DNA of 57,085 nucleotides from Alistipes sp. GTDB taxonomy: Bacteria > Bacteroidota > Bacteroidia > Bacteroidales > Rikenellaceae. The stretch is from NCBI GenBank assembly GCA_017560425.1, contig JAFZEX010000011.1, positions 1-57,085 of the forward strand. The letters run 5' to 3'. The notes under the pieces were generated by a model that was not told where the DNA came from, did no database searches, and saw only the letters and a program-made list of their open reading frames with translations. The position numbers and the translations under genes are program-made. This document shows, piece by piece, positions 6,319 to 52,627 of the stretch. The first letter of the stretch is position 1. Each line of letters begins with the position of its first letter.

Positions 6319-6448
6319 GATTTGTTTCAGAAGGGGTTAGGCTTGGTCTATCGCAAAAGAAGAACCCCTCGGGATAGTACTTAGACGTACAGCCCGAGGG
6401 GTCTTACTTTTTGTGATGGGCCGAGAATGACCCCTTATCACGATAATC
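6319..6448 (+). repeat. Long-hairpin element, copy A
   Basis: A 130-base imperfect inverted repeat. Outer arms AGAAGGGGTTAGGCTTGG and its partner after the apex (CCGAGAATGACCCCTTATCA) pair with G-T wobbles. The apical stem is CCCCTCGGG...CCCGAGGGG, with conserved GGGATAGTAC and GTACAGCCC around the loop. The distal tail CCACCTAAATCAGC lies at 6299-6310. This is the plus-oriented form; it lies beside copy B, which is in the opposite orientation. Together they follow the M16 peptidase stop codon on the minus strand. Confidence 0.85.
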
Positions 6449-6458
6449 AGCGAGAGGG

Positions 6459-6584
6459 AATTTGTTGTCAGAGTGGTGTAGCAGTGACGATGACATGAAA
6501 AAGCCCCAGATGGGCTGTACTGTAGTACTGCTCATTTGGGGCTTTGATTGAAGCGTCGCTGATACGCCGCTATCACAACAAATT
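6459..6584 (-). repeat. Long-hairpin element, copy B (abuts M16 stop codon)
   Basis: A 126-base inverted repeat with ends AATTTGTTGT / ACAACAAATT. The last two bases overlap the M16 peptidase stop codon (6583-6585). The apical stem is CCCCA...TGGGG, and the conserved core is GGGCTGTAC...GTACTGCTCAT, the reverse orientation of copy A. In the gene sense the apical stem ends GGGGCTTTTTC, which looks like an intrinsic terminator. A degenerate tail AATCAGCGAGAGGG separates it from copy A. Confidence 0.85.
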
Positions 6585-9393
6585 ATTTTGCTGGGCGCAT
6601 AATAACCTTTGTAAAGTTACCATCAGCGAGAACCTTCTTAGCCATAGCCTTCACGTCGTCATAAGTCACGTCATTAAGCATGTCGAGGTAATCCTCCTTG
6701 TAGTTGTAGCCCTCCTCATACCAACGTGTGATAGCCGACATCCAGCCGCCGTTGTTCTCGAGAACGTTATTGTAGTTCTTCTTGAGGAACTCACGAGCCT
6801 TGTCGATGTCGTCGTGCTTAGGACCCTCCTCAGCAATCTTCTCGATCTCGGCAACGCAAATCTCTACGAGCTCGTCAGCAAGCTGCTCGTTAGTGTCGAA
6901 TGCGATTAGCATCTGATAGTGCTCGTAAGGATACTTGTTGATGCCACCCTGCACCTGTACGCCATAGGTACCACCCTTCTCCTCACGGATAGAAACGAGG
7001 TAGCGTGAGTCGAGCGCACGGCAAAGGAGGTCGAGTACGAGGCGGTTCTTAGCGTTGTCAGCAAAGTCGCCCGAGTAAGTCAAGTATACAGACACCTTAG
7101 GCTGCTGCATCTGAGCTGTGAAGTCGCAAGTAACCTCACCCGTAGCAACACGCACGCCATCGTCCTGAGCGCTATACTTCGACTTCTTAGCAGTAGGCAA
7201 TGAGCCGATATACTTCTCAACGAGTGGCTTCAAAGTCTCGAGCTCCACGTTACCAACGATGATGAAGCGGAAGTCGTTAGCGTAGCTGTAAAGCTGGCTG
7301 TGTACGCTTGCCAAGCTCTCGAGGGTCAATGTCTCGAAGTCAGAAGCCTTAGTCATCTGACGACGTGGGTGGTTACCATAGAGAGTCTCAATATAGTTCT
7401 TGCTTACGATGTATGAAGGATCCTTCTCCATGTTAGTGAAGTAAGGAACATACATCTTCTTAATATTGTCGAGGTCGTTCTGATCGAAGCGTGGGTCGGT
7501 AAACTGGAGGTACATGAGCTGAAGGATAGTCTCGATGTCCTTAGGCGAACCTGCAGCGTTCACGCCGTGCTCGTAGTCAGCAACGCCGATAGATGCCGAT
7601 GCGTTCTTACCTGTAAGCTGCTTAGCGAGCTCAGTTGCTGAGAACTTGCTGATACCTGACTGACCCATCACCATGCCGAGCATGTCACCTGTGAAGAGCA
7701 CGTCGTCAGCGAGCAACGACTTACCACCCTTAGCCACAGCGTTGATGCGTACCTCGTCAGCCTTGAGTGTAGATGGGCGAACGATAACCTTGATGCCATT
7801 CTTCAATGTCCACTCAGTGTAGCCGAGCGACTCGTTAGTAGCTGTCTTCTTCACTACTGAGCCCTTCAACTCAACTGACTCGTCGATAAGTGGAACAATC
7901 ACGGTGTTGTCCTTGTAAGGTTCAATCTCTGCAGCCTTCACCTCAGCGATAACTGCCAAGAACTCCTCCTCAGTAGGGATCACAAGACCCTCCTTCTCAG
8001 GTGTGCGAGCAAGGATCACGAGGTTCTGATCAGGTGTTGAAAGCTGGCTGTAAAGCTGGTTGAAGATGTCGATGTTAATGCTTGCAAGCATCTGCTGGTC
8101 GAGCTGCCACTCAGTCTCAGCGTCCATCATAGGAGTACCCTTAGCGTAGAAGTCGAGGTAGCGCTGTGCATACTCGTCGTTGCGCACGTCGTTACGGTTT
8201 GTGTATTGGCGCTCAGCATACATCTTGAGCTCCTCCTTAGCACGCTCCAACTCGCCTGCTGTGAAGCCATGACGACGCATACGCTCCATCTCAGTGTACA
8301 TAGCACGGAAGCCATCGATGAGGCGACCCTCGTGAGCAACAACAGAGAAGCTTGTAGCGTCCAATGTAGGACATACGCCGATGCTACCCTCAGACATACC
8401 ACCACCCAAGAATGGAGCGTCAGCAGCCTGAGCAATCTCCTCGAAGCGGTTGTTCATCATCATTGTAGCGAGGTTGTAAACAACGTCCAAAGAGTAAGCC
8501 TCTACGGTGTTCTTAACCTCCTTAGGAAGAGCCTCACGACGACCAAACATCATCACGCTTGAACGTGTAAGCTCCACGTCAGAGAATACAGAAACGATAG
8601 GCTCCTCAGTTGCAGGAACGAATACTACCTCCTTCTGTGCAGCATCTGCTGGTGAGGCAGGAATATCTGACATAAGGTCCTTAAGCTTTGCCTCTACCTC
8701 ATCAACGTCGATGTCACCAACGATAACAATAGCCTGGTACTCAGGGCGATACCACTTCTTGTAGAAGTTCTCCAACGATGTGTGGTCGAATGAGTTTAGG
8801 CCATCGAGGTAGCCGATAAGGTTACGACGCTCGTAGATAGTGCCCTTGAACAAGTTCTCGAACATGTCGTACTGAGCACGAAGGTTAGCACCATCACGTG
8901 TACGAAGCTCCTCCATGATCACGCCACGCTCCTCATCAACCTCAGCTGGATCCAATGCGATGAACTGCGACCAGTCGTGAATGATAAGAAGAGCAAGGTC
9001 GAGGTTCTCAGGGGTGATTGGGCAATCCTTAATCATATACTCGGTGCAATCCCATGAAGTAAATGCGTTAAGGTTGTAACCAAACTGCACACCGATAGTC
9101 TCAAGGCTCTCAATCATCTCCTTACCTGGGAGGTTCTTGGTGCCGTTGAATGCCATGTGCTCGAGGAAGTGAGCCAAACCCTGCTGGTCGTCATCCTCCT
9201 GTACTGCGCCCACATCGTGGTAGATGTAGAAGCTTGCCTGGCCCTTTGGCTTCTCGTTGTGGCGAATGAAGTAGGTCATGCCATTCTCAAGGCGACCTAC
9301 TCGCACCTGCTCGTCAAGCGGAAGCGGAGTCTGAGCCGAAAGACCCATAACACCCAATACAAGTGCTACGAGTGAAAAAATAAGTTTTTTCAT
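6583..9393 (-). CDS. Secreted M16 (insulinase/pitrilysin family) zinc peptidase
   Basis: The protein is 936 residues with a cleavable signal peptide (LVLGVMGLSAQ end). It contains two tandem M16 repeats: an active N-terminal half carrying the inverted zinc motif HFLEH (His75, Glu78, His79), and C-terminal halves starting around residue 520 that lack it, as is normal for single-chain pitrilysins. It probably degrades peptides in the periplasm. It is monocistronic, driven by a TATCTTTG box, and ends directly in hairpin element B. Codon use is biased towards codons seen in the highly expressed genes here, which suggests strong expression. Confidence 0.93.
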   Translation of the reverse strand: MKKLIFSLVALVLGVMGLSAQTPLPLDEQVRVGRLENGMTYFIRHNEKPKGQASFYIYHDVGAVQEDDDQQGLAHFLEHMAFNGTKNLPGKEMIESLETIGVQFGYNLNAFTSWDCTEYMIKDCPITPENLDLALLIIHDWSQFIALDPAEVDEERGVIMEELRTRDGANLRAQYDMFENLFKGTIYERRNLIGYLDGLNSFDHTSLENFYKKWYRPEYQAIVIVGDIDVDEVEAKLKDLMSDIPASPADAAQKEVVFVPATEEPIVSVFSDVELTRSSVMMFGRREALPKEVKNTVEAYSLDVVYNLATMMMNNRFEEIAQAADAPFLGGGMSEGSIGVCPTLDATSFSVVAHEGRLIDGFRAMYTEMERMRRHGFTAGELERAKEELKMYAERQYTNRNDVRNDEYAQRYLDFYAKGTPMMDAETEWQLDQQMLASINIDIFNQLYSQLSTPDQNLVILARTPEKEGLVIPTEEEFLAVIAEVKAAEIEPYKDNTVIVPLIDESVELKGSVVKKTATNESLGYTEWTLKNGIKVIVRPSTLKADEVRINAVAKGGKSLLADDVLFTGDMLGMVMGQSGISKFSATELAKQLTGKNASASIGVADYEHGVNAAGSPKDIETILQLMYLQFTDPRFDQNDLDNIKKMYVPYFTNMEKDPSYIVSKNYIETLYGNHPRRQMTKASDFETLTLESLASVHSQLYSYANDFRFIIVGNVELETLKPLVEKYIGSLPTAKKSKYSAQDDGVRVATGEVTCDFTAQMQQPKVSVYLTYSGDFADNAKNRLVLDLLCRALDSRYLVSIREEKGGTYGVQVQGGINKYPYEHYQMLIAFDTNEQLADELVEICVAEIEKIAEEGPKHDDIDKAREFLKKNYNNVLENNGGWMSAITRWYEEGYNYKEDYLDMLNDVTYDDVKAMAKKVLADGNFTKVIMRPAK

Positions 9394-9462
9394 AAAGCTG
9401 ATAATTAAGTAATTATATTAAGTTTTTGTTGCTATCTGCACATTTGCGGATATTAATTCAAG

Positions 9463-9470
9463 CAAAGATA
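9463..9470 (-). promoter_or_regulatory. -7 box of M16 peptidase promoter
   Basis: TATCTTTG on the minus strand, with a TTG about 20 bases further upstream (near 9490). It gives a leader of roughly 65 bases. Confidence 0.55.
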
Positions 9471-9568
9471 CGATTTTTTGCTTGATTACCAACATCTACG
9501 CACACATTTTTTGAATTTATTTACACAATATTTCAACGCCAATGTTAGCTTATTATTGCAAAGTTTAG

Positions 9569-9576
9569 TATATTTG
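9569..9576 (+). promoter_or_regulatory. -7 box of thioesterase-glycosyltransferase operon
   Basis: TATATTTG lies 19 bases before the ATG of the acyl-ACP thioesterase gene. The -33 region is weak (TTAG near 9544). Confidence 0.5.
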
Positions 9577-9595
9577 TACTCAAATATTACTACAT

Positions 9596-10318
9596 ATGGC
9601 AGAAATCACTACTTACAAATACCGAATAGAGCCCCAGGATGTAGACTTCACACTACGTGCCTCGGCAGCCTCAATCATCAACTATATGCTCAACGTTGCG
9701 GGCATCGATGCCGACAGCAAGGGCTTTGGCGTAGCATCGCTCCAGGGCAACAAATTTACATGGGTACTCTCACGCCTCGCCGTGGATATCGAGCGCCAAG
9801 CAGAGCAGTATAGCAACATCGAGATCGACACATGGGTCAATGAGTGCAACCGTCTCTCCTCTACCCGTAACTTCTGCATGCGTCAGGGCAACGAGCTTTT
9901 GGCAGCCTCAGTGTCGCAGTGGTGCGTGCTTGACATGGAGAGCCGTCAGGTAGTAGACCTCTCTATCATGAAGGAGCGCCACGACCAAATCATGGTAGAT
10001 GCTCCATCGCCCACAAGCGTCCCTGCTCGCCTACGTCCTATGGAGTACACAGCCTCGAGCCAGCACACCGTGGCATACAGCGACATCGACTTTAACCGCC
10101 ACATGAACACGTTGCGCTATGTCGATATGATCTTCGATGCTATCTCGCTCGATGCCATCGAGAACAACCGTGGCATGCGTCTTGACTTTAACTTCATCGC
10201 CGAGGCACGCTATGGCGAGACACTAACCATATCACACCTAAACGATGGCAACACATGGCACTTCGAGATAGCCACAGCAGAGAAGACGCTTTGTAGAGCA
10301 AAAATAGAGTTTAAGTAA
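9596..10318 (+). CDS. Acyl-[acyl-carrier-protein] thioesterase
   Basis: This 240-residue double-hotdog protein of the FatA/bacterial acyl-ACP thioesterase family hydrolyses acyl-ACP to free fatty acid. The N-terminal hotdog holds TWVLSRLAVDIERQ and the C-terminal one holds the catalytic-type SDIDFNRHMNTLRYVDM (about 158-174), with Asn and His placed as in plant and bacterial FatA/FatB. The start is the ATG after the TATATTTG box. The next gene begins directly after its TAA, so the two form an operon. Confidence 0.88.
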   Translation: MAEITTYKYRIEPQDVDFTLRASAASIINYMLNVAGIDADSKGFGVASLQGNKFTWVLSRLAVDIERQAEQYSNIEIDTWVNECNRLSSTRNFCMRQGNELLAASVSQWCVLDMESRQVVDLSIMKERHDQIMVDAPSPTSVPARLRPMEYTASSQHTVAYSDIDFNRHMNTLRYVDMIFDAISLDAIENNRGMRLDFNFIAEARYGETLTISHLNDGNTWHFEIATAEKTLCRAKIEFK

Positions 10319-11461
10319 GTGAACACCAAGAAGCTACATATCGCCATCGTTGGTCCTGCACACCCCTATCGTGGAGGACTTGCCTCCATCATGGAGACCA
10401 TGGCTCGTGAGTATCAGCGTCGAGGCTATCGAGTCGATATTCTCACCTTCACGCTGCAATACCCCGCCCTTTTGTTCCCCGGCAAGAGTCAGACGGTAGA
10501 CACCCCTCCGCCCACCGATCTAAGCATCGAGCGCAAGGTATCGACCATCAACCCTATGACCTGGTGGCAGGTGGGTCGCAAGCTCTGCAAGCTACGTCCC
10601 GACATTGTGCTAATGAAGTATTGGACACCCTTCATGGCACCTTGCTTCGGCTCTATCGCACGCCTTGCCCGCAAGAATGGCCACACACGTGTCATCTGTC
10701 AGATAGACAACGTCGAGCCCCACGAGCACCACATAACCGACAAGATGTTTAACCGCTACTACCTACGCTCGGTAGATGGATTTATCTACATGTCGGAGCA
10801 GGTGCATGGCGAGCTTACAACATACACCCACGCCCCCGCACTCTTCTCGCCACACCCCATGTTCGAGCACTTTGGAGAGCGCAAGGAGCGCACCGAGGCG
10901 TGCAATGCCTTGGGCTTAGACCCTGGCACTCGCTATGCCCTATTCTTCGGCCTCATACGTGACTACAAGGGCTTAGACACCCTCATCGAGGCATGGGCAA
11001 AGTTCCGCCGCTCGGGACATAAGCTCCTCATAGCGGGCGAGTTCTACGCCTCACGCGATAAGTATATCGACCTTATTGAACGCCTTGGCTTACAAGATGA
11101 TATCATCCTCCACGACCACTTTATCCCCGACAGCGAGGTAGCCAACTACTTCTCCGTCTCGGACTGCGTGGTGCTCCCCTACAAGACCGCAACGCAGAGT
11201 GGCGTGACACAGATAGCCTACAACTTCCGCACCCCTATCATCGTAACAGACGTAGGAGGACTAAAGGAGATTGTTCCCGACGGCGTGGTAGGATATGTCG
11301 TAGACAGCTCAGTCGAGGGTGTCGTAGATGGACTAAACAGAATATACGAGCAAGGTTGCCTCGATGAGTTCACCCACAATATGGAGCATGAGCGCAAGCG
11401 CTTCTCGTGGGCAGCCATGTGCGACAAAATCGAGGAGGTATACCACCTAACGAATAAATAG
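10319..11461 (+). CDS. Family 4-type glycosyltransferase
   Basis: The 380-residue protein has a GT-B fold. The N-terminal domain opens with HPYRGGLASIMETMA, the nucleotide-independent start typical of GT4. The C-terminal domain contains FFGLIRDYKG, SVSDCVVLPY and the donor-binding region ATQSGVTQIAYNFRTPIIVT with VGGLKE. The classical EX7E is altered: the first Glu position is within TQSG. No signal peptide or membrane span is seen. The start is a GTG placed immediately after the thioesterase stop (TAAGTG), implying coupling. Donor and acceptor are unknown; pairing with a thioesterase hints at lipid or glycolipid metabolism, which is inference. Confidence 0.85.
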   Translation: MNTKKLHIAIVGPAHPYRGGLASIMETMAREYQRRGYRVDILTFTLQYPALLFPGKSQTVDTPPPTDLSIERKVSTINPMTWWQVGRKLCKLRPDIVLMKYWTPFMAPCFGSIARLARKNGHTRVICQIDNVEPHEHHITDKMFNRYYLRSVDGFIYMSEQVHGELTTYTHAPALFSPHPMFEHFGERKERTEACNALGLDPGTRYALFFGLIRDYKGLDTLIEAWAKFRRSGHKLLIAGEFYASRDKYIDLIERLGLQDDIILHDHFIPDSEVANYFSVSDCVVLPYKTATQSGVTQIAYNFRTPIIVTDVGGLKEIVPDGVVGYVVDSSVEGVVDGLNRIYEQGCLDEFTHNMEHERKRFSWAAMCDKIEEVYHLTNK

Positions 11462-11473
11462 TTGGCAAAAATA

Positions 11474-11505
11474 TTTTGTTGTTACAACGAAAATCACTAT
11501 ATTTG
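11474..11505 (+). promoter_or_regulatory. Promoter of zeta-like kinase gene pair
   Basis: TTTTG at 11474-11478 and TATATTTG at 11498-11505 have a 19-base gap, a full match to the Bacteroidota vegetative promoter. Confidence 0.7.
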
Positions 11506-11528
11506 CATAAAGTAAGTTTATAAGAGGT

Positions 11529-12258: not shown

Positions 12259-12276
12259 ACAAGTAAACAAAAAGTT

Positions 12277-12306
12277 AGAGGAGACCCGCTTTGGGCCTCC
12301 TCTTTT
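12277..12306. terminator. Bidirectional terminator between convergent genes
   Basis: AGAGGAG-CCC / GGG-CTCCTCT with TTTT on the right and AAAAAG on the left. It serves the kinase pair on plus and the 175-aa gene on minus. Confidence 0.8.
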
Positions 12307-14663: not shown

Positions 14664-14866
14664 GTTTAGCGACGCGTGACACGTAGGAAGAGATAAGCCC
14701 TGCGTGCTTGATAGGGGTTTTTAAAGTGGGACGAATGGGATAGATGGGAGCGCTAAAATAGGGAGATTAGGGGAATTTAAGGAGATTAAGGAAATTAAGG
14801 AAAGGCTATCACTAAACTCATTAAATTCACTAAACTCCTTAATCTACCACCTCAATCAGCGCACCG
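14664..14866. repeat. Composite fold-back region beside hairpin copies C/D
   Basis: It contains GGGACGAATGGGATAGATGG, then AATTTAAGGAGATTAAGGAA, then ATTCACTAAACTCCTTAA: the same modules, in the same order, as 6050-6195. It ends with CCACCTCAATCAGCGCAC (about 14848-14865), the distal tail found beside other hairpin copies. No gene is seen. Confidence 0.7.
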
Positions 14867-14996
14867 ATTTCTCGCGAGAAGGGTTGCAGATGCAACGCTC
14901 GGCAAAAATCCCGACGATGGGCTGTACTTTGGCGTACTGCTCATTGTCGGGACTCTTTTTGCTAGCGGCGGCAGATGCGCCCTTATCACGAGAAAG
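14867..14996 (-). repeat. Long-hairpin element, copy C
   Basis: Arms TTTCTCGCGAGAAGGG and CCCTTATCACGAGAAA pair almost fully. The apical stem is CCCGAC...GTCGGG, with GATGGGCTGTAC / GTACTGCTCATT around the loop, in the same orientation as copy B. In the minus-strand sense the apical stem is followed by ATTTTTG. It joins copy D head-on through GAAATTTC. Confidence 0.85.
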
Positions 14997-14998: not shown

Positions 14999-15127
14999 AT
15001 TTCTTGTTAGAAGGGGTTAGGCTTGGTATATCACAAAAGAAGATCCCCTCGGGATAGCACAAATAGTACAGCCCGAGGGGTCTTTCTTTGTGTGATGGGC
15101 CGAGAATGACCCCTTATCACAAGAAAT
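14999..15127 (+). repeat. Long-hairpin element, copy D (two bases from a stop codon)
   Basis: A 129-base inverted repeat with ends ATTTCTTGTTAG / ACAAGAAAT. The outer arms are nearly identical to copy A (GGGGTTAGGCTTGGTATATC) and the apical stem is CCCCTCGGG / CCCGAGGGG, with GGGATAGCAC and GTACAGCCC. It ends two bases before the stop codon of the 416-aa lipoprotein gene. Confidence 0.87.
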
Positions 15128-15129: not shown

Positions 15130-16380
15130 TTACTTCTTAGCTGGAACAATCTTCATTGGCACTTTCGCACCCTCAGCTGGCTCAACACCTGTATTCACAG
15201 GAGCATTCTCAGGGCGCACGGTCTGTGTCGATTTCTTAGGGAGCTCAGGGAATGCTGGCATAGCCGCACCTGGAACAATGCGCTTAATCTCGAAATCAAC
15301 CACAACACCCTCGTTAGGCATCAACATTCGTGATGGAGGTGCAAACTTAGTAGGTGCCCAAATGGTGATGCTACCAAACTCACCGACATACTGCAAGCAG
15401 TGCTTGATAACCTCCAAGCGGATAGTGCTTACAGGAGCCATGTGCTTCTTAAGGTCAGCAATGATCTTCTCGCTCTGGCGAATAACAGCGTAGCGTGCCG
15501 AGTCGGTAAGCTCCTTGTTAGCCTTAGCCTCCATGATACGCTTCTCGAGACCCTCCATCTGAGTCTTTGTAGACTGAAGGAGCGTACCACGATAGCTATA
15601 GATGCGATAGTCGAGAGCAATAGAGTCGGTAGGAGCAGAGATCTTCACACCACCAGCGTTGTTAATGCGGTAGTAGATAGTATCGTTGCCGATAGCCAAA
15701 GGCTGCACACCTGGCTGCTTAGCAACCTCTGCCAACCACTCGCCTGTCTGCTCCAAGTGATACTTAGGAAGCTCGTTGCGGTAGTAGTTCTGAATGTGTG
15801 AGCGATGCAGCATAATCGTTGCCTGTGCCGCTGAGTCAAGGCGAACTGCCGAAGCATCAGCCTGCTCGCCAATAAGATCCTTAGTCGCCTTGATACCCTC
15901 GAGCACATAGTGAACATTCACAGGGGCAGCTGCCGACACAACCATGTTAGAAGCCATTGCCGACATCCACTCAGTAAACATCTCACGAGTATACTTCTCG
16001 TTGTAGATTGCAGGGAGCTCCATGTCTGCGCTATGTGCAAACATACGACGCTGCTTAGCCATCATATATGGACGCATGCACTCCATATCGAACTTAGCAA
16101 ACTCAGCGTTAATAAGCTCGATGTCAGGAAGTGACTTAGCATCGGTTGAGAGATACTTCTCAGCGAGCTCGATAAAGAGGTCACGATTGTAGTCGAAATC
16201 AGCCAACTGAGTGTGAAGAGGCAAAGCCATCTCGATACCATAGGCATATGATAGCGAGTCGAACTCTGCATTAGGGTTGTTGTAGGCACGATTCTCCGCC
16301 TCGTCGAAGTAGAACTCGCCGTGCGAGCTACACGAAATAAGCGTAGCCATAGCGGCTACAAGAAATAAGATTTTCTTCAT
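15130..16380 (-). CDS. FKBP-type peptidyl-prolyl isomerase-like lipoprotein (long form)
   Basis: The protein is 416 residues. The signal peptide ends in LISC (lipobox), so it is a predicted lipoprotein. The N-terminal part carries the FDSLSYAYGIEMAL opening shared with FKBP_N dimerisation domains, and the C-terminal part keeps an FKBP-like order: DYRIYSYRGTLLQST, then a long helical insert (about 280-310), then VGEFGSITIWAPTKFAPPS, ending PNEGVVVDFEIKRIVPG. Active-site aromatic residues are only partly conserved, so isomerase activity is doubtful. It is the last gene of a four-gene minus run and ends at hairpin D. Confidence 0.72.
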   Translation of the reverse strand: MKKILFLVAAMATLISCSSHGEFYFDEAENRAYNNPNAEFDSLSYAYGIEMALPLHTQLADFDYNRDLFIELAEKYLSTDAKSLPDIELINAEFAKFDMECMRPYMMAKQRRMFAHSADMELPAIYNEKYTREMFTEWMSAMASNMVVSAAAPVNVHYVLEGIKATKDLIGEQADASAVRLDSAAQATIMLHRSHIQNYYRNELPKYHLEQTGEWLAEVAKQPGVQPLAIGNDTIYYRINNAGGVKISAPTDSIALDYRIYSYRGTLLQSTKTQMEGLEKRIMEAKANKELTDSARYAVIRQSEKIIADLKKHMAPVSTIRLEVIKHCLQYVGEFGSITIWAPTKFAPPSRMLMPNEGVVVDFEIKRIVPGAAMPAFPELPKKSTQTVRPENAPVNTGVEPAEGAKVPMKIVPAKK

Positions 16381-25197: not shown

Positions 25198-25231
25198 TGT
25201 CTTGTCCGCAACCACCTCAATTAGCGCACAA

Positions 25232-25357
25232 TTTCTTGTTAGATGGGGCTGGGCTTAGTCTATTTCAAATAAAGATCCCCTCGGGATAGTACTAAAAGTA
25301 CAACCCGAGGGGTCTTACGTTTAAGATGGGCCGAAAATAGCCCATTATTACAACAAA
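25232..25357 (+). repeat. Long-hairpin element, copy E (touches a stop codon)
   Basis: A 126-base inverted repeat, single copy. Arms TTTCTTGTTAGATGGGG and CCCATTATTACAACAAA; apical CCCCTCGGG / CCCGAGGGG with GGGATAGTAC and GTACAACCC. It ends on the base before the stop codon of the zinc-ribbon gene (25358-25360). The distal tail CCACCTCAATTAGCGCAC is at 25213-25230. Confidence 0.87.
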
Positions 25358-26098
25358 CTACTCTGCAACGAGAATACGACCGCAATACTCACACACGATA
25401 AGCTTCTTACCCTGGCGAATATCTGCCTGACGCTGTGGAGGGATACGGTTGAAGCAACCGCCACAAGCATCACGAGTAACAGTCACAACAGCCAAGCCAT
25501 TGCGAACGTTGCTACGGATACGGTTGTATGCTGCCAACAAGCGCTCGTCGATAGGCTCCTTAGCCTTCTCAGCCTTAGCAACAAGCTCGGCAACCTGCTG
25601 AGCAGTCTCTGCCTCGATTGAGTCGAGCTCCTCGCGCTTAGCCTTATAGTCGATGTTGCGCTCCTCGACCAAAGCGTTAGTCTCGTCTACAAGAGCCTTC
25701 TTAGTCTTGATCTGTGCAGAGTACTCCTTAAGGCGCTTCTCAGCAAGCTCGATCTCGAGCTCCTGATACTCAATCTCCTTAGTGATAGCGTCGTACTCAC
25801 GGTTGTTACGCACGTTGTTCTGCTGCTCCTTGTAGTTGCCAATCATAATCTTTGCCTGGTCAACCTCACGCTTACGCTGACGTGTGAGCGAGTTGAGCTC
25901 CTCGATCTCGGCATTCACATTCTCGATACGAGTATTCAAACCAGCAAGCTCGTCCTCGAGGTCCTGCACCTCCAAGGGAAGCTCACCCTTAATCTTGTTG
26001 ATTTCGTCGATTGCTGAGTCGATCTTCTGCAACTCGTAAAGAGCCATAATCTTCTCCTGCATCGAGTAATCAACCTCGTTTGTCTTCTTCTGTGCCAT
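25358..26098 (-). CDS. Coiled-coil C4 zinc-ribbon protein (zf-RING_7/DUF164 type)
   Basis: The protein is 246 residues. A long antiparallel coiled coil (about 12-185, rich in Glu, Lys and Leu) is capped by a C4 zinc ribbon: CGGCFNRIPPQ and CEYCGRIL near the C terminus. Homologues in many bacteria are annotated as nucleic-acid-associated zinc-ribbon proteins and often sit next to nif3, exactly as here (24-base gap). The molecular role is unsettled. It is the last gene of the trkA-to-zinc-ribbon minus run and ends at hairpin E. Confidence 0.88.
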   Translation of the reverse strand: MAQKKTNEVDYSMQEKIMALYELQKIDSAIDEINKIKGELPLEVQDLEDELAGLNTRIENVNAEIEELNSLTRQRKREVDQAKIMIGNYKEQQNNVRNNREYDAITKEIEYQELEIELAEKRLKEYSAQIKTKKALVDETNALVEERNIDYKAKREELDSIEAETAQQVAELVAKAEKAKEPIDERLLAAYNRIRSNVRNGLAVVTVTRDACGGCFNRIPPQRQADIRQGKKLIVCEYCGRILVAE

Positions 26099-46766: not shown

Positions 46767-46829
46767 GAATTTTTTGATACGACTTATAGTTCTACATTAG
46801 ATAGTAACTACATAAATCATAATTGATAT

Positions 46830-48092
46830 ATGTTTGCCCTTGCCGACTGCAACAACTTCTTTGTCTCGTGCGAGCGAGTCTTCCGACCCGACCTTGAGGG
46901 GCGGCCCGTCATCGTGCTCTCGAACAACGACGGCTGCGCCATAGCACGAAGCAACGAGGCTAAGGCTCTCGGCATAAAGATGGGCGACCCGCTCTTCAAG
47001 ATACGCCACCTGGTACAGGCGCACAACGTAGCCGTATTCTCGGGCAATATGACCCTATATGCCGACTTCTCACGCCGTGTGCGTACAGTGTTACGTGAGA
47101 GTGCGCCACAAATCGAGGTATACTCTATCGACGAGGCATTTCTCGATATGCGAGGCATGGACAACATCAACTTCGACGACTTCGCAAAAAATCTCTCTGC
47201 ACGCTGTCGTCGCCTCACAGGCATTCCCATATCTGTGGGCGTAGCACCCACCAAGACCCTCGCAAAGATTGCTGCCGAGCTATGCAAGCACTACCCCAAG
47301 CTTCGTGGCGGTTGCTTCATGCATCGTGACGAAGATATAGAGAAGGTGTTGCGCAAGACCCCTATCGAGGATGTGTGGGGCATAGGTCGCCGTAGCGCAC
47401 CACGCCTACACCTTAGTGGCATACACACCGCCTGGGATTTTCGACAACTCAGCGAGGAGCATATTCGCAATCGCATGGGTATCAATGGAGTACGCACATG
47501 GCGAGAGCTTCATGGCATACCCTCAATAGGCTTCGAGCACCAGCCACGCAGCAAGCAGTCGATATGCAACTCTCGCAGCTTCTCGCACGAGATCTACGAC
47601 CTGAAACTTCTGGCTACGCAGGTTGCTAAATTTGCATCGATGACCGCCGAGAAGCTACGTTCGGAGGGCAGCCTATGCTCCGAGCTCACGGTGTTTGCTG
47701 CCACCAACCGCTTTCGTGACGACGAGCCACAGCAGTATGGCAACATCAAGCTCTCGTTCCCCGAGCCCACGAATAGCACTCTGCATATTGTGCGCAGCGC
47801 CCGTGAGGCTCTCGCCGAGATATTTGTGCCAGGTTGCGGATATAAGAAGGCGGGGGTTATCGCCTCGGGCATACAGCCACGTGAAGCCACACCCCACTCG
47901 ATGTTCGATGCAGAGAAGCAGGCACAACACGAGCGCCTCATGCGTGCCATGGACTCGATAAATGGCAAGCACGACGGAAAGAATGTGGTTATAGCATCGG
48001 AGGGCATGAGCCGTCTGCTATCATCGAGCGAGCACCGCTCACCCCGCTACACCACACATTGGGACGAGATACCTGTGGTGACAATCAAGTAA
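46830..48092 (+). CDS. umuC: UmuC-like Y-family DNA polymerase V catalytic subunit
   Basis: The protein is 420 residues. The palm opens FALADCNNFFVSCERVFRPD with the catalytic Asp, then VIVLSNNDGCAIARSNEAKALGI; the second acidic patch is EVYSIDEAFLDM (about 95-106). Then come the helix-hairpin-helix region (DVWGIGRRSAPRL) and the DUF4113-like C-terminal part (ending YTTHWDEIPVV). It gives translesion synthesis with UmuD'. Confidence 0.95.
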   Translation: MFALADCNNFFVSCERVFRPDLEGRPVIVLSNNDGCAIARSNEAKALGIKMGDPLFKIRHLVQAHNVAVFSGNMTLYADFSRRVRTVLRESAPQIEVYSIDEAFLDMRGMDNINFDDFAKNLSARCRRLTGIPISVGVAPTKTLAKIAAELCKHYPKLRGGCFMHRDEDIEKVLRKTPIEDVWGIGRRSAPRLHLSGIHTAWDFRQLSEEHIRNRMGINGVRTWRELHGIPSIGFEHQPRSKQSICNSRSFSHEIYDLKLLATQVAKFASMTAEKLRSEGSLCSELTVFAATNRFRDDEPQQYGNIKLSFPEPTNSTLHIVRSAREALAEIFVPGCGYKKAGVIASGIQPREATPHSMFDAEKQAQHERLMRAMDSINGKHDGKNVVIASEGMSRLLSSSEHRSPRYTTHWDEIPVVTIK

Positions 48093-48122
48093 TAGGTGAA
48101 ATTAATTATTAAAGATGTGATT

Positions 48123-48268
48123 GGCTACTGCACAAGCAAGTTGTGCAGCTTAACGCCCATCCCTACTGCTCGCCGCAGGGGCACTTGCAAACAACGAAGC
48201 AAGAACTGCATAGCAGTAGCCTTTGTCCTTTATACCCATAGCTGCAAACAAGTTTGCCTATGGGCATA
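48123..48268. other. Structured intergenic region beside tRNA-His
   Basis: GGCTACTGC (48123-48131) pairs with GCAGTAGCC (48213-48221). Inside it is the hairpin CTGCACAA / TTGTGCAG (48128-48148) and CTTGC/GCAAG pairs. A second stem follows: CCCATAG-CT-GCAAAC / GTTTGC-CTATGGG (48235-48265). No coding frame is convincing. It may be a structured RNA or a fold-back repeat; I do not recognise it. Confidence 0.5.
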
Positions 48269-48277
48269 AAAAACAAA

Positions 48278-48297
48278 AAGATGTCTTTCGACATCTT
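48278..48297 (-). terminator. Terminator of tRNA-His
   Basis: Minus-strand AAGATGTC-GAAA-GACATCTT stem, followed by TTTGTTTTTT. It lies 18 bases after the tRNA 3' end. Confidence 0.85.
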
Positions 48298-48314
48298 CTT
48301 GCTTCGTGTGTTTG

Positions 48315-48389
48315 GGTGGAAGATGGGATTCGAACCCACGACCTTAGGAACCACAATCCTCTACTCTAACCGACTGAGCTACATCCACC
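48315..48389 (-). tRNA. tRNA-His (anticodon GTG)
   Basis: The cloverleaf is clear on the minus strand: acceptor GTGGATG / CTTCCAC with one U-U mismatch, D arm GCTCAGTCGGTTAGAGT, anticodon loop TTGTGGT with GTG, T arm GTGGG-TTCGAAT-CCCAT. The extra 5' G and discriminator C73 are the tRNA-His identity marks. The 3' CCA is not fully encoded (CCACCC). A promoter upstream and a terminator downstream show a single-tRNA unit. Confidence 0.93.
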
Positions 48390-48416
48390 ATTTGATTTGT
48401 TTTCCAAATCGGTGTG

Positions 48417-48448
48417 CAAATATACACACTTTTTTCTTATCTCCAAAA
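48417..48448 (-). promoter_or_regulatory. Promoter of tRNA-His
   Basis: TATATTTG (48424 to 48417) and TTTTG (48448 to 48444) on the minus strand have a 19-base gap. The tRNA 5' end is 27 bases downstream. Confidence 0.7.
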
Positions 48449-48557
48449 CTTTTGGGTGATTTTTTATGAAAAATGTTAAAATTACAGTTTTCGCCATGTT
48501 GTCGGGCGATAGAAAGTAAAATAATTTATTATTATTTCATAATAAAGGTGCTGAATA

Positions 48558-48588
48558 TTTGTGGATTGACAAAAATTGATTATCTTTG
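48558..48588 (+). promoter_or_regulatory. Promoter of rpmB-rpmG-DUF4295
   Basis: TTTG at 48558-48561 and TATCTTTG at 48581-48588 have a 19-base gap. Confidence 0.7.
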
Positions 48589-48633
48589 TGCGCTTTTCAG
48601 CCACGTTGGTTGATAAGTTAAAAATTAAGATAG

Positions 48634-48867
48634 ATGAAAGTTTGTGAAATTACCGGTAAGGTAGCGATGGTGGGTAACAATGTTTCTCACTCGCACATCC
48701 GCACAAAGCGTAAGTTCTCTCCAAACTTGAGAACAAAGCGCTTCTGGTCGGAGGAGGAGGGCCGCTGGATCACTTTGAAGGTTTCAGCTGCTGGCATCAA
48801 AACAATTAACAAGAAGGGTCTTACTGCTGCACTTCGTGAGGCTAAGGCTGCAAAGAAGGTTTACTAA
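48634..48867 (+). CDS. rpmB: 50S ribosomal protein L28
   Basis: 77 residues, normal length. It opens [20 protein letters not shown] with the L28 Cys, then [15 protein letters not shown]. First gene of the L28-L33-DUF4295 operon, with its own promoter. Confidence 0.97.
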
Positions 48868-48883
48868 AAACAAGTAACAGAAA

Positions 48884-49066
48884 ATGGCAAAGAAAGGTAA
48901 CAGAGTACAGGTGATCCTCGAGTGCACTGAGCAGAAGGAGAGCGGCGTTGCAGGAATGTCACGTTACGTCACCACTAAGAACAAGAAGAATACTCCTGAC
49001 CGTTTGGAGCGTAAGAAGTACAATCCATACTTGAAGCGAGTAACTCTACACCGTGAGATTAAGTAA
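48884..49066 (+). CDS. rpmG: 50S ribosomal protein L33
   Basis: 60 residues. It opens [20 protein letters not shown] and ends [15 protein letters not shown], typical of L33. The zinc-binding cysteines of the C+ paralogue are mostly absent (a single Cys), so this is the C- type. It lies 16 bases after rpmB. Confidence 0.95.
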
Positions 49067-49086
49067 TTTTAACAAGGAGTTAAAGT

Positions 49087-49245
49087 ATGGCAAAGAAAGT
49101 AGTTGCAACACTTAAGACTGGTACTACTAAGAAGTACACTAAGTGTATCAAGATGGTTAAGTCAGAGAAGACTGGTGCTTACGTTTTCCAGACTCAGAAC
49201 ATCTTGGAGGAGGATGAGATTAAGGCATTCTTCGCTCAGAAGTAA
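49087..49245 (+). CDS. DUF4295 small protein
   Basis: 52 residues, too short for most gene finders: MAKKVVATLKTGTTKKYTKC, ending EIKAFFAQK, very basic. This family is found after rpmB-rpmG in Bacteroidota and is thought to be a ribosome-associated protein; the function is unproven. The ATG is 20 bases after the rpmG stop and the operon terminator follows. Confidence 0.9.
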   Translation: MAKKVVATLKTGTTKKYTKCIKMVKSEKTGAYVFQTQNILEEDEIKAFFAQK

Positions 49246-49272
49246 TTTTTATTAGTTCGCAAGAGCTAATAT

Positions 49273-49298
49273 AAAAGGCGACCAAAAGGTCGCCTTTT
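49273..49298. terminator. Terminator of rpmB operon
   Basis: AAAAGGCGACC / GGTCGCCTTTT perfect stem with AAAA loop, flanked by T-rich and A-rich sequence, so usable on both strands. Confidence 0.9.
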
Positions 49299-49364
49299 AT
49301 GTTTTATGTCACTACCCCACATCTATCGAAGTCACCAGACGTGTCCACATAAATTAGCAAGATG

Positions 49365-49495
49365 AATTTGCTGTTAGAAGGGTTGCAGATGTGACTTATA
49401 GCAAAAGAGAACACCCCGGGATAGTACAAGACGTACAGCCCGGGGTGTTTTACTTATTAGGATAGGTCGCAGATGCGCCCTTATCACCACAAATT
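49365..49495 (+). repeat. Long-hairpin element, copy F (overlaps deoC stop)
   Basis: A 131-base inverted repeat, single copy. Ends AATTTGCTGTTAG / ATCACCACAAATT; apical stem ACACCCCGGG / CCCGGGGTGT, with GGGATAGTAC and GTACAGCCC. The last two bases overlap the deoC stop codon (49494-49496). The tail TCCACATAAATTAGC lies at 49345-49359. Confidence 0.85.
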
Positions 49496-50369
49496 AAAAA
49501 TACTTTGTTGGCTTGTCTACAATTGCCGAGATAAGATTATTAGCTGCTGACGAAGCACCGATACGGAAGAGGTCGGTTGTGAGCCACTCCTTGCCAAGAA
49601 CCTCCTCGACGATGGTATAGTAAAGCGCTGCATCCTCAGGGGTCTTAACACCACCTGCAGCCTTGAAGCCCACCTTACGGCCGGTCTTCTGATAGTAATC
49701 CTTAATAGCGTGACACATAACGAAGGCAGCCTCAGGAGTTGCCGCTACGTCAATCTTACCTGTAGAGGTCTTGATGAAGTCGGCACCAGCGAACATAGAC
49801 ACGAGTGATGCACGGCGGATAAGCTCAGGAGTCTTCAACGCACCTGACTCAATGATGACCTTAAGCACTACATCCTTAGCCTCGTTGCACAAGAGCTCTA
49901 CCTCGCTTGCTGCCTCGTCGATGTGGTTTGAGATGATAAGACCAGGGTTGAGCACGATGTCGATCTCGTCGGCACCATTCTCGATAGCCATAGCCACCTC
50001 CAACGCCTTAACCTCGATGAAGCTCTGCGACGCAGGGAAGGCACCAGCAACAGATGTGATGCGCATAGGTGTGCCATCGACCTCAAGGCCTACGTCCTCG
50101 ACAAATGGAGGGTATACACATATTGAGGCAACATTAGGAATGTTGGGGTACTTCTGCGTGAACTCAACAGCCTTACGAGCAAAGGCACGTACTGACTCGT
50201 GCGAATCGGTACATGACAATGTTGTGAGGTCGATTGCCGAATAGCAGAATTTGTAGACATCAACATTTCCATTACGGTTAGCGGCGACCTTGATTTTAGC
50301 CACCTCTTTACCTACCTGCGCCTCGGTATGTGCAGGTGCATAGTTTTCTAGTTCCTTGATGTAGTCCAT
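49494..50369 (-). CDS. deoC: Deoxyribose-phosphate aldolase
   Basis: It splits 2-deoxyribose 5-phosphate to glyceraldehyde 3-phosphate and acetaldehyde. The start is the ATG at 50367-50369 (291 residues): a TTG 18 bases upstream would lie at or before the expected transcription start. The Schiff-base Lys is in ADFIKTSTGKID, the proton-relay Lys in VGFKAAGGVKT, and Asp and Lys in DIVLNPGL and VVLKVIIES. The N-terminal extension of about 35 residues is longer than in E. coli. It ends in hairpin F. Confidence 0.95.
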   Translation of the reverse strand: MDYIKELENYAPAHTEAQVGKEVAKIKVAANRNGNVDVYKFCYSAIDLTTLSCTDSHESVRAFARKAVEFTQKYPNIPNVASICVYPPFVEDVGLEVDGTPMRITSVAGAFPASQSFIEVKALEVAMAIENGADEIDIVLNPGLIISNHIDEAASEVELLCNEAKDVVLKVIIESGALKTPELIRRASLVSMFAGADFIKTSTGKIDVAATPEAAFVMCHAIKDYYQKTGRKVGFKAAGGVKTPEDAALYYTIVEEVLGKEWLTTDLFRIGASSAANNLISAIVDKPTKYF

Positions 50370-50390
50370 AGTCACACTTTTTTGCAATTA

Positions 50391-50398
50391 CAAATATA
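50391..50398 (-). promoter_or_regulatory. -7 box of deoC promoter
   Basis: TATATTTG on the minus strand with TTG about 20 bases upstream (near 50419-50421). It places the transcription start near 50384, only about 15 bases before the chosen ATG. Confidence 0.55.
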
Positions 50399-50453
50399 GA
50401 GTTTTTTAACAAATATTGCAACTATCTTAACAATTTTTATCACAAAACCACCC

Positions 50454-50492
50454 AAAAAAAAGAGCCTACCCTATTTCTTGGGCAGGCTCTTT
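50454..50492 (-). terminator. Terminator of FN3 lipoprotein gene
   Basis: Minus-strand AAAGAGCCTGCCC / GGGTAGGCTCTTT stem (one G-T), followed by TTTTT. Confidence 0.85.
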
Positions 50493-50522
50493 GGTGTTTA
50501 GCTCCTCAAGGGAGCCTATAAA

Positions 50523-51899
50523 TTATAGGCTGTAAACCATTGAAGTAGCGATGAATGAGCTAAGTGAACGAGTCTTCATAGAACGCACGTTAGCCATTGA
50601 AGGAGTAGCAGACTTCTTAGCAAGGTTCTTCATTGTACCAGCGTAGAATGGGAAGATATTCTCGTTCTCATCCTGGTAGAATGAGATATTGCTACCGCCG
50701 TCATATGCACACATACCGAATGCCTTAGGAGCATAAGTGTCGCCCTGCTGGTTGTATGTGATAGATGGCATGAGGCTCTCAGAATCAACAGTGCCATCAG
50801 CGTTCATGATAAGGTAGTGTACTGGGAACTCACCCAACATGAAGTTGTAAGAACCGTCAGCGAACTCACCGCAAGATACCCACATATCGTAGTAGCCATT
50901 GTTGTAGCCGACCATACCCTCGTTCATAAGAGCAAGAACGTTCTCGCCGTTCTGACCCTCGTAGAGGTAACCGATAGCAGGTGTGTTAGCACCAATAGCG
51001 CTGAAGCCATCAACGAGCAAACGATCAGTGTAACCCTCGTACTGAACGATAGTAAGAGTGTGCTCTACAGTCTTGTTAGAGAAGCAATCCTTGATTGACT
51101 TACCGTTCTGGAAAGTGAAGATCTGATCAGTTGAGCAAGTCCACTCACCGAACCAAGCCTTAGCCTCCTCAGTAGCTACTGCTACGTCAGTTGTGATCTC
51201 TCCCTTGTTAAAGAACTCAAGACCAGCCTCATTCTTAACCAAGAAAACTACAGTGTAGCTTGTGCTACCTGTACAGCCTGTGATAACGCCCTCGTAACCC
51301 TCAGCAGTGTTTACCTTAGAAACGATGTCAGCGCTTGCAGCGCTCAAGTACTGCTTAAGATCGTTTGCGTTCATACCAGCGATCTGCTCAGTAGCGAAGA
51401 TACCTGCCTCGATAGACACAACGCCAGTACCCTTCCATGAATACAAGAAACCATCGTAGCTGTTTACGAAGTAAGTGCTGCCGTAGCCATCCTCTACCTC
51501 GACAGGCTCAGTGATCTTAGAAAGAGTCTGCTCAAACCAATCAACCTCAGTTGGACCAGTGATCTCAACTACCACCTTAGCAGCGTCAGATGTCTCGTAG
51601 CCAGTACCCTTAGCCTGAACACGTACAGTGTACTCACCTGCGTTAAGGTTGTCGAAAGTGTACTCGCACTCAGCAGTGTTGTAGTTCTTACCACCCATAT
51701 TAACGAGGTACTGCTCAGCACCTGTTACAGGGTTCCAAGTTAGAGTAAAGCTGGTTGCAGTCTTAGTTACTGACAACTCAGGAGTTGCAAGCTTAGTCTC
51801 GCCTGGCTGTGGCTCTGGCTCTGGACCTGGAGTAGGCTCACAAGAAGCGAAAGCAAACATAGCAGCCAAAACTGCCATCATAGAAAAAAACTTCTTCAT
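50523..51899 (-). CDS. Lipoprotein with fibronectin type III domain
   Basis: The protein is 458 residues with lipobox FASC (Cys20), then a Pro/Glu-rich spacer (EPTPGPEPEPQPGE). An FN3-like domain (about 37-112) has SFTLTWNPVTGAEQYLV and AGEYTVRVQAKGTGY. The remaining 340 residues have no recognised motif but are beta-rich with aromatics (DGYGSTYFVNSYDGFLYSW). It is surface or periplasmic, monocistronic and well expressed by codon use. Function unknown. Confidence 0.78.
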   Translation of the reverse strand: MKKFFSMMAVLAAMFAFASCEPTPGPEPEPQPGETKLATPELSVTKTATSFTLTWNPVTGAEQYLVNMGGKNYNTAECEYTFDNLNAGEYTVRVQAKGTGYETSDAAKVVVEITGPTEVDWFEQTLSKITEPVEVEDGYGSTYFVNSYDGFLYSWKGTGVVSIEAGIFATEQIAGMNANDLKQYLSAASADIVSKVNTAEGYEGVITGCTGSTSYTVVFLVKNEAGLEFFNKGEITTDVAVATEEAKAWFGEWTCSTDQIFTFQNGKSIKDCFSNKTVEHTLTIVQYEGYTDRLLVDGFSAIGANTPAIGYLYEGQNGENVLALMNEGMVGYNNGYYDMWVSCGEFADGSYNFMLGEFPVHYLIMNADGTVDSESLMPSITYNQQGDTYAPKAFGMCAYDGGSNISFYQDENENIFPFYAGTMKNLAKKSATPSMANVRSMKTRSLSSFIATSMVYSL

Positions 51900-52371
51900 A
51901 ATTTTGATAATTAGTTATAAAAAATAAATGTTGTTTCAGCTCGTCAAACATGACCACAATAGAAGACTAATAATAGCACATCTACTATAGACACAATTTT
52001 ACAATGCGAAGATAATATATTTTTTTCAAATGCACATAAAAGAGCTATGTTTTTTGCTTAAATTTAGCAAAGTAGACGCAAATAAGCAAAAATGGGAGAG
52101 ATGGGGACAATGGGACAAATGAGAAGTGGTAATTCCCATCAAGCGAAGCGTTACCCATCGAGCTTTAGCGCTCCCATCTACCCTTTGCCTCTGCCCCCGT
52201 AATTAGCGCAAAGATAGTGAGCTTAGAGAATTTAAGGAGCTTAGAGAGTTTAGGGAGAGCGCTATCATCATTTATTCGCAAAGCACAAACTCTCCCTAAA
52301 TTCACTATACTCCCTAATTTCCCTATATTCTCTCTCTTCCATTTGCCTCTACCCCATCACTAAGTGCACTA
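51900..52371. repeat. Composite fold-back region beside hairpin copies G/H
   Basis: It first holds the upstream region of the FN3 gene (TATCTTCG, one mismatch from a -7 box, about 52007-52016 on minus). From 52090: GAGATGGGGACAATGGGAC, CCCATCAAGCGAAGCG, GAGCTTTAGCGCTCCCATC, then AATTTAAGGAGCTTAGAGAG (52220-52240) facing CTCCCTAAATTCACTATAC (52292-52310). The same modules occur at 6050-6290 and 14715-14845. No gene is seen. Confidence 0.7.
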
Positions 52372-52495
52372 TTTCTTGTTAGAAGGCATCAGGCACAACG
52401 CTCGGCGAATTTCGAGGCGATGGGCTGTACTAATGATACCACCCATTGCTAAGATAATTCGTTAGCGGCAGTAGATGATGACTTATCACAAGAAA
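52372..52495 (-). repeat. Long-hairpin element, copy G (degenerate)
   Basis: Ends TTTCTTGTTAGAAG / CTTATCACAAGAAA are intact, but the centre is decayed: GATGGGCTGTAC is kept while its partner reads ATACCACCCATTGC. It is oriented like B and C. Next to copy H, in the opposite orientation. Confidence 0.75.
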
Positions 52496-52496
52496 G

Positions 52497-52627
52497 AATT
52501 TGTTGTTAGAAGCCGCGAGATGTGGTACATCGAAAAAGTAATCACCCAGGGATAGTACACTTTAGTACAGCCCTGGGTGATTATCTTTTAGCGATGTTCC
52601 GCAGATTGCGGCTTATCACAACAAATT
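52497..52627 (+). repeat. Long-hairpin element, copy H (one base from a stop codon)
   Basis: A 131-base inverted repeat with ends AATTTGTTGTTAGAAG / CTTATCACAACAAATT and apical stem AATCACCCAGGG / CCCTGGGTGATT, with GGGATAGTAC and GTACAGCCC. Its arms (GCCGCGAGATGTGG) differ from the other copies but are matched on the other side (CCGCAGATTGCGGC). It ends one base before the OmpA-type gene stop codon (52629-52631). Confidence 0.87.

What the first reader, a model, noticed from the sequence alone, without database searches (positions are those of the whole stretch)
6319..52627. Uncatalogued family of ~125-131 bp long hairpins: eight copies at five loci, with covarying arms
Copies A 6319-6448, B 6459-6584, C 14867-14996, D 14999-15127, E 25232-25357, F 49365-49495, G 52372-52495 and H 52497-52627 are full-length imperfect inverted repeats. 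Primary sequence of the arms differs while pairing is kept: apical stems CCCCTC/GAGGGG (A, D, E), CACCCC/GGGGTG (F), CACCCA/TGGGTG (H), CCCGAC/GTCGGG (C), CCCCA/TGGGG (B); outer ends TTTCTTG/CAAGAAA (D, G) versus AATTTGTTG/CAACAAATT (H, B). A GTAC-loop-GTACAGCCC core is constant. Compensatory change points to selection on structure, or to family amplification from several source copies. I do not recognise the family.
Basis: partly seen in the sequence, partly recalled or inferred. Interest (0 to 1): 0.82.

Follow-up and report, generated by a model that had tools for sequence, protein, structure and literature searches.

The report
Hairpin repeats docked at gene ends
A gut bacterium carries well over a hundred copies of a long DNA hairpin that begins almost exactly where genes end; its pairing is preserved while its letters are swapped between copies, and the same gene ends stay occupied in a sister species, so it looks like an undescribed family of gene-end repeats that may also stop transcription.

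Summary
The eight hairpins are real. They belong to a chromosomal family with at least 125 copies at 97 loci in this 1.84-Mb MAG. It occurs in 23 of 37 genomes of the genus that were searched (own included) and in 0 of 24 from other families; the 80 listed hits of a capped species-wide scan are all Rikenellaceae. Covariation is far above shuffled and slid controls.

In fixed orientation, the element starts at the stop codon of the upstream gene: 88 of 92 loci, against 4 of 85 at the other end and 75 of 1540 random positions. The strand antisense to that gene carries the G-U pairs: 553 of 6126 pairs against 78 of 5575. In a sister species 19 of 19 examined gene ends also carry an element, but in 17 of 19 an own copy from another locus is more like it than the orthologue. 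Element-bearing ends mostly lack an ordinary terminator (4 of 79 against 30 of 92).

Best reading: a new ERIC/REP-like family of gene-end hairpin cassettes, kept as compound terminators and swapped between copies. Function and exchange mechanism are inferred.

The parts
6319..6448 (+). Copy A, class 1, second unit of a tandem pair (strand given = the better-folding strand, antisense to the neighbouring gene)
   Evidence: fold -72 kcal/mol on + against -50 on -; model hit 131 bits
6459..6584 (+). Copy B, class 2, touching the stop codon of the M16-peptidase gene 6583-9393(-)
   Evidence: in gene orientation CAAAATAA|TTTGTTGTGATAG
14867..14996 (+). Copy C, class 2, second unit of a tandem pair; the sister species has a single unit here
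14999..15127 (+). Copy D, class 1, 2 nt from the stop codon of gene 15130-16380(-)
   Evidence: also present in the sister species
25232..25357 (+). Copy E, class 1, at the TAG stop codon of the Zn_ribbon_9 gene 25358-26098(-)
   Evidence: orthologous ends with and without element
49365..49495 (+). Copy F, class 1, at the TAA stop codon of the DeoC-family gene 49494-50387(-)
52372..52495 (+). Copy G, class 2 (degenerate), second unit of a tandem pair
52497..52627 (+). Copy H, class 1, next to the stop codon of the gene 52629-54392(-), with weak TPR matches
6289..6312 (-). Tail motif (TTGCTGATTTAGGTGGGCAGGGGC) beyond the A/B array
   Evidence: 0 in 100 shuffles
14847..14864 (-). Tail motif GTGCGCTGATTGAGGTGG beyond the C/D array
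25212..25229 (-). Tail motif GTGCGCTAATTGAGGTGG beyond copy E
52352..52369 (-). Tail motif (GTGCACTTAGTGATGGGG, 2 mismatches) beyond the G/H array

Best explanation
This is a chromosomal family of about 125-135 bp hairpin cassettes that sit in one orientation directly behind the last base of genes. Shown: the copies, the gene-end docking, conservation of pairing rather than letters, the one-strand G-U bias, a difference in tandem number, and same-site presence with different sequence in a sister species. Inferred: (1) once docked, the cassette serves as the gene's transcript-end structure, a compound terminator usable in both directions, and the native terminator is lost; (2) copies overwrite one another by ectopic recombination between their conserved ends, helped by the palindrome, so position is inherited while sequence turns over; (3) the form that selection sees is the folded antisense strand, as antisense RNA or as single-stranded DNA. 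How a new site is first occupied exactly at a stop codon is not known.
For: Copies and spread: 125 copies at 97 loci; within the genus only, among the genomes searched; no match in viral contigs (one pattern), phages, plasmids and E. coli (copy H). Docking: 86 of 90 loci with a stop codon within -8..+13 nt, 56 exact; 88 of 92 against controls 4/85, 4/92 and 75/1540. In named Rikenellaceae loci 75 of 94 matches lie within 19 nt of a stop codon, and by eye 12 of the other 19 are second units of arrays. One copy starts right behind a tRNA-Gln CCA end. The base outside the right end pairs with the last base before the element in 211 of 224 (permuted mean 192.5), and the outer triplets pair in 177 of 224 against 76.9. 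Covariation; arm-swap test, own arm beats a foreign arm in 90.9% of 2450 comparisons. Terminator role: bearing ends have a canonical terminator before the next ORF in 4 of 79, non-bearing ends in 30 of 92; a stretch of at least 5 T in 8 follows the central stem in 105 of 116 copies (sense) and 96 of 116 (antisense), mean 5.3 and 5.4 against 4.2 shuffled. At the copy-E gene all 4 close relatives without the element show a hairpin-plus-T terminator behind the same stop codon (by eye). Replacement: 19 of 19 own sites shared; medians 91.5% identity for gene ends, 0.76 for the elements, 0.96 for the best own paralogue. From the other side, 19 of the 20 G017 arrays in those stretches lie at own element-bearing ends.
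Against: The G-U bias is on the strand antisense to the mRNA and does not depend on whether the next gene is convergent (8.4%) or co-directional (8.3%), so selection is not simply for a sense-strand terminator hairpin. A strict terminator scan calls only 2 of 89 arrays on the sense strand and 0 antisense, though it needs a perfect stem and cannot see the interrupted central one. No transcription data exist. Gene conversion alone cannot place new copies at stop codons. Orthologous elements are slightly closer than the median paralogue (0.76 against 0.71), and in 2 of 19 no paralogue is closer. The G017 stretches (148 kb, 108 kb of it chosen for its elements) are a small part of that genome, and positional retention at about 9% divergence could be plain inheritance.
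Confidence: 0.5

Rival explanations
1. An ordinary selfish miniature transposon or REP-type repeat: moved by a transposase, tolerated at gene ends, with covariation produced by hairpin-templated repair rather than by selection.
For: Multi-copy, palindromic, intergenic, patchy between species; empty and filled orthologous ends.
Against: No target-site duplication above expectation in 49 single-copy loci. Y1 transposase in 0 of 41 genomes. Positions shared 19 of 19 with the sister species although sequences differ. Templated repair would remove, not keep, G-U pairs on one strand. Insertion without regard to genes does not give 88 of 92 at stop codons.
Confidence: 0.2
2. A structured antisense RNA: the element is transcribed from the downstream side and acts as an RNA that blocks, cleaves or stabilises the 3' end of the gene.
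For: The antisense strand is the better-folding one in 114 of 122 copies and carries the G-U pairs; the sequence of internal loops is conserved.
Against: The next gene is co-directional at 36 of 97 loci (convergent 49, none called 12), so no neighbouring gene would transcribe that strand there, yet the bias is equal in both settings. No consistent promoter was recognised by eye in the tail. With DNA parameters the same strand is also the more stable in 7 of 8 window copies, so RNA is not singled out.
Confidence: 0.15
3. A folded single-strand DNA recombination substrate at gene ends: the antisense strand folds and a tyrosine (Xer-type) or other recombinase exchanges the interior between docking sites, as integron attC sites are recombined.
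For: One-strand fold, structure kept without sequence; interior and outer stem assort almost independently (67 of 125 pairs with interiors at least 95% alike share the outer triplet, against 1817 of 4005 of all pairs); replacement at fixed sites; position directly behind stop codons.
Against: Integron integrase: 0 of 41 genomes over the cut-off. From recall, the attC end motifs would lie the other way round. The cassettes carry no gene. Interior swapping is also what plain gene conversion would give. No recombinase limited to element-bearing genomes was sought systematically.
Confidence: 0.15

Closest known systems
ERIC / IRU (enterobacterial, 127 bp)
   Same: About 127-bp repeats in many intergenic copies; effect on the upstream mRNA when at a gene 3' end, depending on orientation (passages of PMC2229807, and PMC10969869); imperfect palindromes (recalled)
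   Different: Different phylum and sequence (copy H: no match in 20,395 E. coli records); here docking is at the stop codon itself, pairing covaries, and no TA or other duplication was found
YPAL / RU-2 (Yersinia, ~168 bp palindromic)
   Same: Long intergenic palindromes without terminal TA (passages of PMC2229807)
   Different: YPAL makes 3-26 bp target duplications (same passages); none seen here
REP / REPIN with RAYT transposase
   Same: Dispersed extragenic palindromes; a single-strand fold is thought to matter (recalled)
   Different: REPs are 20-40 bp (start of the abstract of PMC3733652 in the listings); a Y1 transposase was found in 0 of 41 genomes here
SPRITE, and DUS-pair terminators
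   Same: Dispersed repeats that can resemble or form Rho-independent terminators (passages in PMC10969869, and PMC2267715)
   Different: Not compared by sequence; here the unit is about 130 bp, modular and docked at the stop codon
Integron attC sites
   Same: Imperfect hairpin directly behind a stop codon; structure kept, sequence variable; one strand is the active fold (recalled)
   Different: Dispersed sites rather than cassette arrays; no integron integrase over cut-off in 41 genomes; end motifs the other way round (recalled)

Membership tests
REP/REPIN-RAYT | Y1 (RAYT) transposase in the genome or clade | tested here: not met
   PF01797 in 0 of 41 genus genomes; the control search rang in 5 of 14 known genomes
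REP/REPIN-RAYT | 20-40 bp unit | tested here: not met
   units of about 125-135 bp
MITE (DDE-type) | terminal inverted repeats | tested here: met
   outer triplets complementary in 177 of 224, permuted mean 76.9
MITE (DDE-type) | target-site duplication | tested here: not met
   49 single-copy loci: direct flanking repeats of 2-5 nt at or below expectation
MITE (DDE-type) | related autonomous transposon with the same ends | not tested
   no systematic search for a longer element with the same ends was made
ERIC | ERIC consensus sequence | tested here: not met
   copy H only: no match in 20,395 E. coli records
Integron attC | integron integrase in the genome | tested here: not met
   TIGR02249 over cut-off in 0 of 41 genomes; weaker matches in all 41 and in 14 of 14 controls
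Integron attC | hairpin behind a stop codon, one strand folding better | tested here: met
Known Rfam RNA | score above a family's gathering threshold | tested here: not met
   only a tRNA in the window; best weak hit in 52300-52700 RAGATH-23, 22.8 bits against 92.6
Retroelement | reverse transcriptase in element-rich genomes | tested here: not met
   RVT_1 in 4 of the 11 genomes with at least 43 hits and in none of the other 7, own included; MAGs are incomplete
Intrinsic terminator | GC-rich stem followed by a T run | tested here: inconclusive
   T-rich stretch behind the central stem in 105 of 116 (sense) and 96 of 116 (antisense), but a strict perfect-stem scan called 2 of 89 and 0 of 89
Intrinsic terminator | ends transcripts in vivo | not testable with these tools
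   no expression data

The most novel reading that the evidence does not exclude
The elements are docking sites of a gene-end cassette-exchange system: the antisense strand folds into a hairpin whose shape, not sequence, is recognised, and the interior is swapped between sites while the seat behind the stop codon (or behind a tRNA's CCA end) is kept. It would be an integron-like logic without integron integrase, dispersed over the chromosome and carrying 3' ends instead of genes.
Probability: 0.17. Interest if true: 0.88.

Novelty: new variant of a known kind. Interest (0 to 1): 0.63.

Why it matters
Dispersed bacterial palindromes are usually seen as repeats that land between genes with little precision. 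Here is a family placed to the base at gene ends, held as a one-strand structure, and replaced in place between sister species while position is kept. If the terminator role holds, a genus has swapped many of its native gene ends for interchangeable repeats; if the exchange is enzymatic, it is an unknown recombination system. Both are testable with 3'-end mapping and long-read strain comparisons.

Tried and rejected
Y1/RAYT transposition was tested and rejected: 0 hits in the own genome and 0 of 41. Reverse transcription from RNA 3' ends was considered because one copy follows a tRNA CCA and one a terminator T run; RVT_1 is missing from the own genome and from 7 of 11 element-rich genomes, own among them, so it is not favoured. 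Integron integrase. Target duplication. A promoter reading of the tail (TAAATTTG at the 5' end of some copies) was looked at by eye and dropped as inconsistent between copies. Rfam, viral contigs, phages, plasmids, E. coli: nothing. The automatic present/absent totals (96 / 39) hold false positives and are not used; only rows read by eye or re-parsed are. The alignment of the A/B site laid the sister copy against A; it differs from both A and B.

Rows dropped: 3 of 125 copies under 116 bases; loci with weak or partial hits or too little flank, so 90, 89, 79, 92 or 85 of 97 loci were used; 49 single-copy loci that fitted the end pattern; only copies with regular ends (90; 224); 87 own first copies. 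In one search bearing ends needed a gap of 20 nt behind the array, non-bearing ends a gap of 40 nt behind the stop.

Limits: the own-genome model search scored 150 of 622 candidates, and further diverged subfamilies exist, so 125 is a lower bound, although it includes a few partial or weak hits. The relatives search used stricter filters that lose weak matches. R-scape was not available. Genomes are incomplete MAGs.
Full report
What was checked. All eight hairpins exist at the stated places. RNA folding with 10-nt flanks gives -48 to -78 kcal/mol on the + strand and -41 to -67 on the - strand; + is the more stable in all eight. With DNA parameters + is the more stable in seven of eight, copy E being even. 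No Rfam family reaches its threshold. The 'constant' core reads exactly as stated in three of eight (A, F, H), with one change in D and E; B and C carry the turned-round core and G is a degenerate form of it.

Family size and spread. A covariance model from 27 copies finds 150 places in the 1.84-Mb own genome, which collapse to 125 distinct copies at 97 loci, up to three in tandem, all units of an array in one orientation. That is about 0.9% of the genome by simple multiplication, and a lower bound: 150 of 622 candidates were scored, and further subfamilies with the same ends but other centres turned up beside the tail motif. An end-to-end pattern gives 101 matches against 2 for its reversed control. 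In relatives the model hits 23 of 61 genomes, own included, all within the 37 genomes of the genus in that search, and none of 24 from other families of the order. Contig lengths identify G017, the closest genome, as isolate RGIG9436 from yak cecum. No match in viral contigs, phages, plasmids or E. coli.

Gene-end docking. In the orientation of the neighbouring gene each element reads stop codon, TTTSTTGTGATAAG, stems, CTTCTRACAASAAA. Of 90 loci with enough flank, 86 have the stop codon of an open frame of at least 60 codons ending within -8 to +13 nt of the element's first base, 56 of them exactly; the codons are mostly TAA, with some TGA and TAG. With matched controls it is 88 of 92, against 4 of 85 for the right end read on the other strand, 4 of 92 for the left end on the opposite strand and 75 of 1540 random positions. 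In the 80 named loci from other genomes 75 of 94 matches lie within 19 nt of a stop codon; of the other 19, by eye, 12 are second units of arrays, 5 are cut by the locus end, 1 lies upstream of a start codon and 1 is a false match. In the own genome one copy begins directly behind the CCA end of a tRNA-Gln gene, one behind the T run of a native terminator, and one is not next to a stop codon at all. In close relatives without the element the gene ends at the same codon, so the stop codon is the gene's own. The stem reaches the gene: the base beyond the right end pairs with the base before the element in 211 of 224 copies (permuted 192.5); behind TAA it is T in 130 of 131, behind TAG it is C in 3 of 4.

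Structure and strand. On 20 own copies less than 88% alike, 23 of 46 pairs change on both sides and 95 cells do so, against 40.7 in shuffles and 11-23 in slid structures. On the 27-copy set it is 29 of 46 and 98 cells against 17.5 and 17-28. In a swap test on 50 of 115 copies the own right arm folds better than a foreign one in 90.9% of 2450 comparisons (mean -68.0 against -47.9 kcal/mol). The model strand, antisense to the docked gene, is the more stable in 114 of 122 copies and carries 553 G-U among 6126 pairs, against 78 among 5575 on the sense strand. This holds in 7 of 7 subfamily representatives less than 70% alike (38 against 2) and is the same whether the next gene is convergent or co-directional (8.4% and 8.3%). 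Correction of one arm by the other would erase such pairs, so I read this as selection on that one strand as a single strand.

Turnover. The 34 kb of synteny between the window and G017 holds three arrays in each genome, at the same gene ends. At C/D the G017 element is D's left part joined to C's right end, a unit gained or lost by recombination; at A/B the own genome has two units and G017 one of another subtype. Over 19 own gene ends whose orthologues lie in the 148 kb of G017 held, all 19 carry an element there. Gene ends are a median 91.5% identical, elements only 0.76, the median own paralogue 0.71 and the best own paralogue 0.96; in 17 of 19 at least one paralogue is closer than the orthologue. 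Of those stretches 108 kb were chosen because they hold G017 elements; looked at from that side, 19 of the 20 G017 arrays in them lie at own element-bearing ends. Farther away presence varies. Behind the Zn_ribbon_9 gene 6 of the 10 closest genomes, own included, have an element (one degenerate) and 4 do not; behind the DeoC gene it is 3 of 8, one with a shortened left end (by eye). Interior and outer stem are nearly independent: 67 of 125 pairs with interiors at least 95% alike share the outer triplet, against 1817 of 4005 of all pairs.

What it may do. The four close relatives without an element behind the Zn_ribbon_9 gene show ordinary hairpin-T terminators there (by eye). Own gene ends with an element have such a terminator before the next ORF in 4 of 79 cases, those without in 30 of 92 (1 of 89 against 26 of 82 for a fixed 160 nt). 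The central stem is followed by at least 5 T in 8 in 105 of 116 copies on the sense strand and 96 of 116 antisense, though the strict scan calls few elements. I therefore favour a compound, two-way terminator that has taken over from native ones. The strand bias says that this is not the whole story, since the mRNA-side fold is the poorer one; antisense RNA or a single-stranded DNA form must matter too.

How it spreads. No target duplication is visible. Y1 transposase was found in 0 of 41 genomes, reverse transcriptase in 4 of the 11 element-rich ones, and integron integrase is below cut-off in all 41. Ectopic gene conversion explains the replacement in place; it does not explain how a fresh stop codon is reached.

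Against known kinds. ERIC, YPAL, REP, SPRITE and terminator-type repeats share parts of the picture (passages of PMC2229807, PMC2267715 and PMC10969869; other papers seen as listings only). None was seen described with stop-codon docking plus one-strand covariation in searches, which cover open-licence PMC papers only. I file it as a new variant of the dispersed intergenic palindrome kind, not as a member of any named family.

Noticed in passing
window 52211-52338 and 14783-14845 (behind arrays), 1663-1856 (away from any array): Low-complexity second hairpins: purine-rich minisatellite arms followed by their pyrimidine-rich complement (for example AGATTAAGGAAATTAAGGAA / TTCACTAAACTCCTTAATCT); similar stretches follow the tail motif at many other arrays.
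   Followed up: partly
own genome, 28 exact places of GTGCGCTNANTGANG; tail-like motif behind 52 of 95 arrays: A tail motif near GTGCGCTKATTNAGGTGGGCAGGGGC directly follows many arrays; 60 matches with up to one mismatch against 1 for the reversed control.
   Followed up: partly
own genome C45:36168-36301 (L031): An element begins directly behind the CCA end of a tRNA-Gln gene, so the rule is 'gene end', not only 'stop codon'.
   Followed up: partly
own genome C31:15393-15526 and the class 2 copies: The apical stem-loop is inverted relative to the arms, as if the hairpin tip had flipped.
   Followed up: no
ends of own contigs C1, C2, C9, C15, C16, C18: Several contigs of the MAG break inside or at elements, so repeats of this family limit assembly and the true copy number is likely higher.
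   Followed up: no
G003 locus L224, behind the DeoC gene: A diverged genome of the genus keeps GGCTGTAC..GTACTATCC in a different hairpin right behind the same stop codon.
   Followed up: no
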